A stretch of DNA of 8,851 bases from a bacterium (GTDB lineage Bacteria > UBP18 > UBA7526), in the NCBI GenBank assembly GCA_030615855.1, contig JAUWYL010000033.1, forward strand, positions 1 to 8,851. Reading direction: 5' to 3'. The first letter of the stretch is position 1, and each line of letters begins with the position of its first letter. The position numbers and the translations under genes were made by a program. The notes beneath the pieces are model-generated. The model worked only from the letters and a program-made list of their open reading frames with translations, ran no database searches and was not told where the DNA came from. Shown here piece by piece: positions 7,914-8,557 of this stretch.

Positions 7914-7934
7914 GCCCACATAGCTCAGTTGGTA
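7914..7934 (+). pseudogene. Truncated tRNA-Thr 5' end
   Basis: These 21 bases match the first 21 bases of the intact tRNA-Thr(TGT) at 8058 at 20 positions, differing only at 7920 (A for G). The shared preceding GT extends the match by two bases. The copy stops in the D-loop and runs into a hairpin block. No anticodon arm, T-arm or matching 3' acceptor strand follows before the intact gene, so it cannot be a working tRNA. Confidence 0.8.
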
Positions 7935-8055
7935 TCCCTGCGTCCCGACTTTGTCGGGACCGGTCCCTATGTCCAAAGGACCGGGATCCCGGCTTTGCTC
8001 AGGGAGACCTCGGTTCCAGCTTTGCTGGAACACAGGGGGAGCATCCCACTTTTTT
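7935..8055 (+). repeat. Hairpin block between truncated and intact tRNA-Thr
   Basis: A 121-base run of small palindromes. GTCCCGAC/GTCGGGAC (7942-7949 with 7953-7960) and GGTTCCAGC-type arms (8013-8020 with 8024-8031) are perfect 8-bp stems, both with a TTT loop. CGGTCC/GGACCG (7961-7966 with 7978-7983) is a perfect 6-bp stem. CCGGGATCCCGG (7981-7992) is a perfect 12-bp palindrome. CCCTG (7936-7940) can pair with CAGGG (8033-8037) and close the whole block. It ends with GGGA-GCA-TCCC and six T residues (8050-8055), which vaguely resembles a weak terminator. No coding potential is seen. Confidence 0.75.
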
Positions 8056-8057
8056 GT

Positions 8058-8130
8058 GCCCACGTAGCTCAGTTGGTAGAGCAGGGCTCTTGTAAAGCTC
8101 AGGTCGGGGGTTCGAGACCCTCCGTGGGCT
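8058..8130 (+). tRNA. tRNA-Thr (anticodon TGT)
   Basis: A complete cloverleaf. The acceptor stem GCCCACG pairs fully with 8123-8129, the D stem GCTC with GAGC, the anticodon stem 8084-8088 with 8096-8100, and the T stem 8106-8110 with 8118-8122 around TTCGAGA. The loop CTTGTAA gives anticodon TGT (8091-8093), reading ACA. The discriminator is T8130. The genomic 3' end does not encode CCA, unlike the other three tRNAs here. It occupies the thrU position of the E. coli thrU-tyrU-glyT-thrT-tufB order. Confidence 0.95.
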
Positions 8131-8155
8131 TTGAGTAAAATTCATTCAAAATTTT

Positions 8156-8240
8156 GGGCGGATACCCAAGTGGTTAACGGGGGCAGACTGTAAATCTGCT
8201 GGCGATGCCTTCGGAGGTTCGAATCCTTCTCCGCCCACCA
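8156..8240 (+). tRNA. tRNA-Tyr (anticodon GTA)
   Basis: A class II tRNA with a long variable arm (about 8200-8212). The acceptor GGGCGGA pairs fully with 8230-8236. The anticodon stem GCAGA (8183-8187) pairs with TCTGC (8195-8199), and loop CTGTAAA gives GTA (8190-8192). The T stem 8213-8217 pairs with 8225-8229 around TTCGAAT. The discriminator is A8237, with CCA encoded at 8238-8240. The CCA also forms the start of the left arm of the inverted repeat that follows. Confidence 0.96.
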
Positions 8241-8297
8241 TCCTTCGCCAATATGTGGTGACCCTATGAAGCAGGCTACGGATGGCAGGCCAATTTT
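8238..8297. repeat. Inverted repeat at the tRNA-Tyr 3' end
   Basis: CCATCC (8238-8243) is the exact reverse complement of GGATGG (8280-8285). CTTC (8243-8246) can pair with GAAG (8268-8271), and GCAGGC occurs twice (8271-8276, 8285-8290). It fills the space between tRNA-Tyr and the broken tRNA-Gly and begins in the tRNA's own CCA. Confidence 0.5.
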
Positions 8298-8361
8298 GCG
8301 GGTGTAGCTCAGTGGTAGAGTCCCGGCCTTCTCCCGAAAATCTCCGAGTCCGACCACCTCT
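8298..8361 (+). pseudogene. Broken tRNA-Gly
   Basis: Positions 8298-8331 read as a tRNA-Gly 5' half: acceptor GCGGGTG, TA, D stem GCTC with GAGT, loop AGTGGTA, anticodon stem CCGGC, then CTTC. As in tRNA-Gly(TCC), the homology reaches anticodon bases T and C and then breaks. The sequence at 8343-8361 faintly resembles a T-loop and 3' acceptor strand (TCCGAGT, then CCGAC, then CACCTCT), but no T-stem 5' strand or anticodon 3' strand is present and about 8 bases are missing. It is either a 5' half cut by a hairpin repeat or a decayed whole gene. It differs at several 5' positions from the intact tRNA-Gly at 8423, so it is not a recent copy. Confidence 0.7.
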
Positions 8362-8410
8362 AGTGGACGGGCGAGAATAGATTTTCGGGGATCCCGCTAA
8401 GGCGCGGGGG
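8332..8410 (+). repeat. Hairpin block between broken and intact tRNA-Gly
   Basis: CCCGAAAATCT (8333-8343) pairs perfectly over 11 bp with AGATTTTCGGG (8379-8389). It encloses a small CCAC/GTGG hairpin (8354-8357 with 8363-8366). CCCGC/GCGGG (8393-8397 with 8404-8408) follows. GGGATCCC recurs here (8388-8395) and in the tRNA-Thr hairpin block (7983-7990), and GGGATCC again at 8510-8516, which hints at a shared repeat family. Confidence 0.7.
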
Positions 8411-8422
8411 CGTAATCTGTTG

Positions 8423-8496
8423 GCGGGCGTGGTTCAGTGGTAGAACATCAGCCTTCCAAGCTGAGGACGTGAGTTCGATTCTCATCGCCCGCTCCA
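8423..8496 (+). tRNA. tRNA-Gly (anticodon TCC)
   Basis: A complete cloverleaf. The acceptor GCGGGCG pairs fully with 8486-8492, and the D stem GTTC with GAAC. The anticodon stem TCAGC (8448-8452) pairs with GCTGA (8460-8464), and loop CTTCCAA gives TCC (8455-8457). The T stem 8469-8473 pairs with 8481-8485 around TTCGATT, with one G-T pair. The discriminator is T8493, with CCA encoded at 8494-8496. It is in the glyT position of the conserved tRNA-tuf operon. Confidence 0.96.
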
Positions 8497-8514
8497 AACT
8501 GGGTCAATCGGGAT

Positions 8515-8557
8515 CCTCGCAACTGTAATCCCAACAGAGTTGGGAACATTTGCGGGG
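8515..8557 (+). repeat. Two-tier hairpin before the tuf promoter
   Basis: The inner stem TCCCAAC (8529-8535) pairs perfectly with GTTGGGA (8539-8545) around AGA. The outer stem 8515-8522 pairs with 8550-8557 using one G-T pair. It sits directly upstream of the second promoter. It could insulate or attenuate read-through from the upstream tRNA transcript, but no T-run follows it immediately, so it is not called a terminator. Confidence 0.6.

What the first reader, a model, noticed from the sequence alone, without database searches (positions are those of the whole stretch)
7914..8410. Two separate broken tRNAs, each just upstream of its intact cognate and each joined to palindromes
The same architecture (5' tRNA fragment, hairpin cluster, intact tRNA of the same amino acid) occurs twice within 500 bases, for Thr and for Gly. 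Both blocks also contain GGGATCCC. Two independent accidents of the same form are less likely than one process, such as a palindromic element that targets tRNA genes and is tolerated only where a second copy preserves function.
Basis: inference. Interest (0 to 1): 0.65.

Follow-up and report, generated by a model that had tools for sequence, protein, structure and literature searches.

The report
tRNA genes nested inside broken tRNAs
Two broken tRNA genes in this genome are scars of small mobile DNA pieces that cut into a tRNA gene and bring a working copy of the same tRNA with them, a survival trick that appears to recur, linked to one small DNA-cutting enzyme family, in many bacterial groups.

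Summary
The window holds 5' fragments of tRNA-Thr (21 nt) and tRNA-Gly (34 nt, identical to an intact Gly gene in a relative), each followed by palindromes and an intact tRNA of the same identity. These are two of many. In six related genomes, 35 of 182 intact tRNAs (22 anticodons) are flanked by a same-amino-acid fragment in nested order (5' half before, 3' half after); shuffled flanks give none. In relative G002 the Gly 3' half lies after the intact Gly, so the intact gene sits inside the insert; the window has lost that half. Relatives carry the uninterrupted genes. The inserts end in inverted repeats (often CCCCGCACC...GGTGCGGGG), the same ends that elsewhere enclose GIY-YIG nuclease genes or nothing. 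Some nested inserts carry a GIY-YIG gene. Homologues of that nuclease in other families lie beside a tRNA in 25 of 26 loci, 19 of them with a second, partial copy of that tRNA. Best reading: nuclease-linked palindromic elements invade tRNA genes, survivable because they supply a replacement tRNA. Insertion into tRNA genes and nesting are shown; nuclease-driven mobility is inferred.

The parts
7914..7934 (+). 5' fragment (nt 1-21) of the original (outer) tRNA-Thr
   Evidence: 95% identical to nt 1-21 of the intact Thr; the gene is uninterrupted at the same cysS-tuf position in G003 and nested in G005
7935..8036 (.). block of palindromes (hairpins 7942-7960, 8013-8031; GGGATCCC 7983-7990) inside the dead Thr fragment
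   Evidence: absent from G002, where the flanking matches abut; fold z -4.6
8043..8057 (+). probable remnant of the left arm of the insert (ATCCCACTTTTTTGT; G002 TCCCGCACTTTTAT, G005 TCTTGCACCTTTGT)
   Evidence: comparison of the syntenic loci L090 and L091; the right arm is no longer recognisable in the window
8058..8130 (+). intact inner (replacement) tRNA-Thr(TGT), the only one found in the genome
   Evidence: ARAGORN, RF00005 66.1 bits
8298..8331 (+). 5' half (nt 1-34) of the original (outer) tRNA-Gly, broken in the anticodon loop
   Evidence: 34/34 identical to the intact G003 gene
8332..8557 (.). insert in the outer Gly: left end TCCCGAAAATC (8332-8342), hairpin 8333-8389, inner Gly, right end ATTTGCGGGG (8548-8557)
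   Evidence: G002 has the same insert followed by outer nt 35-74; fold z -3.6
8423..8496 (+). intact inner (replacement) tRNA-Gly(TCC), the only one found in the genome
   Evidence: ARAGORN, RF00005 73.4 bits
8557..8558 (.). junction where the outer Gly 3' half (kept in G002) has been deleted in the window
   Evidence: alignment with G002

Best explanation
Both blocks are relics of insertions of small palindrome-ended mobile elements into the only tRNA-Thr(TGT) and tRNA-Gly(TCC) genes of an ancestor. Such elements interrupt a tRNA gene in a loop (anticodon, D or T loop) and contain, or recreate on insertion, a complete tRNA gene of the same identity. The insertion kills the resident gene but supplies its function, so only insertions with a cognate tRNA survive. 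The outer halves then decay (the window lost the Gly 3' half and all of Thr after nt 21), and further palindromes pile into the dead copy. I infer that the driver is a small GIY-YIG nuclease that cuts tRNA genes and is copied in during break repair. ORF-bearing forms exist at Ser and Asn genes of relatives; the ORF-less window copies would be reduced or non-autonomous forms. Shown: fragments, nesting, interrupted versus uninterrupted alleles, inverted-repeat ends, shared ends with nuclease-bearing elements, nuclease-tRNA linkage. Inferred: cutting, copying, order of events, origin of the replacement tRNA.
For: Nesting: 35 of 182 intact tRNAs with same-amino-acid fragments in nested order, 15 on both sides, 22 anticodons; shuffled flanks 0. 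Uninterrupted alleles: His and Leu intact in G001/G002 and nested in G000; Gly and Thr intact in G003. In most cases the outer copy matches the relatives' intact gene and the inner one does not. Inverted arms of score 11 or more flank 15 inner tRNAs against 1.3 expected. CCCCGCACC 55 versus 4 control; 4-bp target duplications at 13 of 40 paired ends, 2.4 expected. The same kind of ends encloses GIY-YIG ORFs (374 and 272 bp elements). GIY-YIG ORF inside nested inserts at Ser (G002, G004) and Asn (G002). Other families: tRNA beside the nuclease in 25 of 26 loci, partial copy of that tRNA in 19; about 4.7% of control sequence lies that close to a tRNA. The 5' partial copy ends at tRNA nt 52-59, in or next to the T loop, in about 8 of 12 loci; the phage GIY-YIG enzyme SegB cuts at RAWTSGAAC, the complement of the T-loop consensus (PMC13096335).
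Against: The window inserts carry no ORF and most nested inserts carry none. The tRNA-linked nucleases are about 80-100 aa, the catalytic domain only, so their target specificity is unexplained. tRNA inserts lack the 4-bp duplication of the dispersed elements and instead share flanks (CCCG...TGAA in T loops, TTTCA...CAAG in two anticodon loops), so simple transposition does not account for them. In G004 Lys the inner and outer copies are identical, which does not fit a requirement for a cleavage-resistant replacement. No activity has been tested.
Confidence: 0.62

Rival explanations
1. Palindromic elements hit one of two pre-existing tandem copies of a tRNA gene, and the other copy preserved function.
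For: In the window alone one sees only a 5' fragment, palindromes and an intact gene.
Against: In G002 Gly, G001 Cys, G004 Met, Lys and Val, G005 Val and others the missing half lies beyond the intact copy, which a tandem array cannot give. Relatives have one copy at the site, and the inner sequence usually differs from the outer one.
Confidence: 0.08
2. Purely DNA-transposon behaviour: terminal-inverted-repeat elements that captured tRNA genes and insert anywhere; only copies that land in a cognate tRNA gene, or in neutral DNA, persist. GIY-YIG genes are passengers.
For: Inverted repeats, 4-bp duplications, about 17 dispersed paired copies in the genome.
Against: None of the dispersed non-tRNA copies examined carries a tRNA, although random insertion would predict many; tRNA inserts lack the 4-bp duplication; the nuclease-tRNA linkage extends to many families.
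Confidence: 0.2
3. Scars of tyrosine-integrase islands or prophages that entered tRNA genes and were reduced by deletion.
For: Integrase islands split tRNA genes and restore them, leaving fragments (PMC4383910, PMC9897764).
Against: Inserts are mostly 100-400 bp with inverted-repeat ends and no integrase gene; a whole, often divergent tRNA lies between both halves of the old one.
Confidence: 0.05
4. The outer halves are exons of an interrupted tRNA that is spliced, the insert being an intron that happens to hold another tRNA.
For: Breaks are common in the anticodon loop, where tRNA introns sit; the Asn gene of this genome does carry a group I intron there (81.9 bits).
Against: No group I or other intron model matches the window inserts or the nested inserts searched; many outer copies have lost parts of arms, and the window Gly 3' half is deleted.
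Confidence: 0.03

Closest known systems
SegB and related free-standing GIY-YIG homing endonucleases of T-even phages (PMC13096335)
   Same: GIY-YIG nuclease genes lie next to tRNA genes; SegB cuts inside tRNA genes at a motif that is the complement of the T-loop consensus
   Different: Phage genes in tRNA arrays, not inside a broken tRNA with a replacement copy; bacterial ORFs here are about 80-100 aa and closer in profile to UPF0213 and SLX1; the window copies have no ORF
Mobile endonuclease ORFs that carry a foreign gene end in fungal mitochondria (Allomyces atp6, Glomus atp6/atp9/cox2/nad3; PMC3630166) and introns with N-terminal duplication in Tremella (PMC7315562)
   Same: An endonuclease element splits an essential gene and brings a foreign replacement part; the displaced native part matches relatives and decays
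   Different: Protein genes in mitochondria, part of the gene replaced, no palindromic ends described in the passages read; here whole tRNA genes in bacterial chromosomes
Integrase islands in tRNA genes (Islander, PMC4383910)
   Same: Splits a tRNA gene and leaves a fragment plus an intact gene
   Different: Large, integrase-encoding, one displaced fragment sharing sequence with the restored gene; no inverted-repeat ends
MITEs (miniature inverted-repeat elements)
   Same: Short elements with terminal inverted repeats, 4-bp target duplications and no ORF, dispersed in the genome
   Different: Candidate partner is a GIY-YIG nuclease, not a transposase; members carry tRNA genes
Group I introns in tRNA anticodon loops (RF00028; PMC3984707)
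   Same: Same target site; the Asn gene of this genome has one where G002 has a nested insert with a GIY-YIG ORF
   Different: Introns keep function by splicing, these inserts by carrying a replacement gene

Membership tests
Free-standing GIY-YIG homing element | GIY-YIG nuclease ORF in the element | tested here: not met
   Not met in the window inserts, which hold no such ORF; met in nested Ser and Asn inserts of relatives
Free-standing GIY-YIG homing element | catalytic residues intact in the tRNA-linked nucleases | tested here: met
   Y, Y, G, R, H and E columns invariant in 21 proteins; PF01541 E 6.6e-14
Free-standing GIY-YIG homing element | cuts the element-free allele and is copied into it | not testable with these tools
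   Needs biochemistry; insert positions in the T loop agree with the SegB motif
Terminal-inverted-repeat element (MITE-like) | terminal inverted repeats | tested here: met
   15 inner tRNAs flanked by arms against 1.3 expected; window Gly insert only weakly (TCCCG-AAAT / ATTTGCGGG); window Thr right arm not recognisable
Terminal-inverted-repeat element (MITE-like) | target-site duplication | tested here: inconclusive
   4 bp at 13 of 40 paired ends, 2.4 expected, but absent at the tRNA inserts
Integrase island in a tRNA gene | integrase gene within the insert | tested here: not met
   Window inserts hold no ORF of 80 aa or more
Group I intron | intron fold in the insert | tested here: not met
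   No RF00028 match in the window or in L101, L095, L109, L191, L103, L056; positive control in Asn, L048
REP/RAYT palindromes | Y1-type REP transposase in the genome | not tested
   PF01797 was not searched

The most novel reading that the evidence does not exclude
A bacteria-wide class of mobile element, a minimal GIY-YIG nuclease with palindromic ends, lives by invading essential tRNA genes (perhaps recognising their hairpin DNA, as SLX1 recognises structure) and carrying a rescue tRNA: a natural cleave-and-rescue system that repeatedly replaces the tRNA genes of its host, at times with divergent ones, leaving nested tRNA relics such as those in this window.
Probability: 0.4. Interest if true: 0.9.

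Novelty: new variant of a known kind. Interest (0 to 1): 0.8.

Why it matters
tRNA genes are essential and usually thought of as stable; here many are single copies that have been destroyed and replaced in place, some more than once (Pro and Leu-CAG are doubly nested). It gives a testable route by which tRNA genes turn over and swap sequence between lineages, a natural parallel to synthetic cleave-and-rescue drives, and a likely role for the many small UPF0213-like GIY-YIG genes found beside tRNAs. It also warns annotators: the broken halves and palindromes look like noise in a single genome.

Tried and rejected
GGGATCCC as shared core: not enriched. Naming the organism: the cysS search of named genomes gave nothing closer than 52% identity, so it is left unnamed; among the genomes only G001-G005 share its genus or family. 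Literature: ten searches found no description of whole tRNA genes nested in broken cognate tRNAs; the nearest are SegB, fungal mitochondrial mobile ORFs and integrase islands; absence from an open-access library is not proof. PIN-like ORF (202 aa) between the Glu-CTC fragment and the intact Glu in this genome: weak PIN match (E 6e-4, below cut-off), not explained. A structure prediction of the nuclease was started but not finished and is not used.

Full report
WHAT IS THERE. The window is a whole contig (G000:C15) of a 1.375 Mb draft genome. After cysS comes the tRNA order Thr(TGT)-Tyr-Gly(TCC)-Thr(GGT), then tuf. The first Thr and the Gly are each preceded by a 5' fragment of the same tRNA and by palindromes. 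The Thr fragment covers nt 1-21, the Gly fragment nt 1-34. Both are real and both palindromic stretches fold far better than shuffled sequence. The shared GGGATCCC is not a family feature.

NESTING. Reading other tRNA clusters of the same genome showed more: His, Leu, Pro and two Arg genes lie between the two halves of another, broken tRNA of the same amino acid. I took the stretches around all detected tRNAs of this genome and of two relatives in its genus and three in its family (part of the tRNAs for G003 and G005; 89 stretches, 223 kb, 182 intact tRNAs) and searched the tRNA-masked sequence with all intact tRNAs. 55 fragments were found, against 1-6 in locally shuffled sequence. With a strict same-amino-acid test, 35 intact tRNAs covering 22 anticodons have a fragment in nested order (5' part upstream, 3' part downstream), 15 of them on both sides; shuffled flanks give 0, 0, 0; the reverse order gives 5, most of which by my reading belong to the next nested locus. 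Among 117 tRNAs at loci of unrelated bacteria the same test gives 7, three from one genome with a different repeat.

UNINTERRUPTED ALLELES. For Gly, G003 has one uninterrupted gene whose first 34 nt equal the window fragment, and G002 has fragment, insert, inner Gly, then nt 35-74 of the outer gene. The window differs from G002 by loss of that last piece. For Thr(TGT), G003 is uninterrupted, G005 keeps both halves around an inner Thr, G002 and the window keep only the 5' piece; the 102-bp palindrome block 7935-8036 is absent from G002. For His and Leu(TAG), G001 and G002 are uninterrupted and G000 is nested. In most loci the outer copy matches the uninterrupted gene of a relative while the inner copy does not, so the inner gene is not simply a copy of the outer one; Lys in G004 is an exception, with identical copies. 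The three alleles of Gly and the sharing of nested His and Leu by G000 and G004 make assembly error unlikely.

THE INSERTS. Inner tRNAs are hugged by inverted arms, often with only 2-14 nt between arm and tRNA; 15 of 182 have arms scoring 11 or more against 1.3 expected from mispaired flanks. The commonest end is CCCCGCACC, 55 copies in the genome against 4 for the pattern read backwards, mostly in convergent pairs 15-375 bp apart. Forty such paired ends in the family show exact 4-bp direct repeats in 13 cases (2.4 expected), so the dispersed ones behave like transposed elements. Those in tRNA genes lack the repeat and share other flanks: T-loop inserts replace TTCG by CCCG-element-TGAA in Lys and Leu of G004, with close variants in two Arg genes of G000; anticodon-loop inserts in Val (G005) and Met (G004) share TTTCA-element-CAAG. 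How they enter is therefore open.

THE NUCLEASE. Paired ends of this type enclose a GIY-YIG ORF in the 374-bp element L192 and the 272-bp element L198/L201, and nuclease remnants in L203 and L206. Nested inserts at Ser (G004, G002) and Asn (G002) carry a GIY-YIG ORF between the outer 5' part and the intact tRNA. A search with the Ser nuclease in 386 genomes hit 37. Of 28 loci examined, 26 lie outside this family, and 25 of these have a tRNA gene near the ORF, many within 50 nt; about 4.7% of control sequence lies within 720 nt of a tRNA. Nineteen of the 25 have a second, partial copy of that tRNA (shuffled flanks 0 of 96). Two layouts recur: 5' part - nuclease - intact tRNA, and intact tRNA - nuclease - 3' part. 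The 5' part ends at nt 52-59, in or next to the T loop, in about 8 of 12 cases, and often has a strong palindrome in or in place of its anticodon arm. The proteins keep all catalytic residues and are closest in profile to UPF0213 proteins, then to the structure-specific nuclease SLX1, then to I-TevI.

HOW IT PROBABLY WORKS. Shown: insertion into tRNA genes, intact cognate inside the insert, decay of the outer copy, shared ends with nuclease-bearing elements, nuclease-tRNA linkage across families. Inferred: the nuclease cuts a tRNA gene in a loop, repair copies the element in, and only events that supply the same tRNA survive. The phage enzyme SegB gives an independent pointer: its mapped cleavage motif RAWTSGAAC is the complement of the T-loop consensus GTTCGAATC (PMC13096335). 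Whether recognition is by sequence or by hairpin DNA is unknown; the small size of the proteins, the SLX1 similarity and the habit of palindromes sitting in hairpin arms make structure recognition attractive but untested. The same Asn gene carries a group I intron in this genome and a nested insert with a GIY-YIG ORF in G002, two solutions to living in a tRNA gene: splice out, or bring a spare.

COMPARISON. Fungal mitochondrial mobile ORFs that replace the end of the gene they split (PMC3630166, PMC7315562) work most alike; SegB is the closest enzyme setting; integrase islands (PMC4383910, abstract) are the familiar bacterial cause of tRNA fragments but differ in size, ends and geometry. The window copies themselves have no ORF, so they are not filed as homing elements, only as relics that fit such a system. 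No paper found describes whole tRNA genes nested in broken cognate tRNAs in bacteria; the literature available was limited.

CAVEATS. All genomes are drafts. Family counts include loci related by descent, so 35 is not 35 independent events; the 22 anticodons are a better guide to breadth. The 28 cross-family loci were the best matches per genome to one tRNA-linked query, so the linkage applies to this nuclease clade, not to GIY-YIG proteins in general.

Noticed in passing
L048:740-977 (-), G000:C44:40490-40800: tRNA-Asn(GTT) of this genome is split between nt 34 and 35 by a group I intron (RF00028, 81.9 bits); the Asn gene of relative G002 instead holds a nested insert with a GIY-YIG ORF.
   Followed up: partly
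L056:795-1403 (-), G000:C45: A 202-aa ORF with a weak PIN-domain match lies between a 35-nt 5' copy of tRNA-Glu(CTC) and the intact gene.
   Followed up: partly
L065:1765-2360 (another bacterial family, G043): Three tRNA genes (Lys, Leu, Gly) are each followed by a repeat of about 115-150 nt that ends in a direct copy of the tRNA 3' end; in two or three it begins with an inverted T-arm.
   Followed up: no
L073 (-) 1160-1500 (another family, G006): Two tRNA-Glu copies whose anticodon arm is replaced by the hairpin TCCCGATACTTCGGGA flank an intact tRNA-Glu(CTC).
   Followed up: no
L108, L109 (Glu-TTC of G002 and G001): Two sequence types of tRNA-Glu(TTC) are outer and inner in G001 but inner and outer in G002, with the same insert sequence upstream, as if the types had been exchanged.
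   Followed up: partly
L304, L330, L316, L191: Several tRNA-linked GIY-YIG ORFs run into the downstream tRNA gene, in L304 apparently ending at the TAG within GGATAG of the tRNA.
   Followed up: no
L042:2240-3010 (-), G000:C35: A methyltransferase gene, which resembles tRNA (mo5U34)-methyltransferases by eye, lies between Pro(TGG) and Arg(TCT), which are adjacent in G001 and G002.
   Followed up: no
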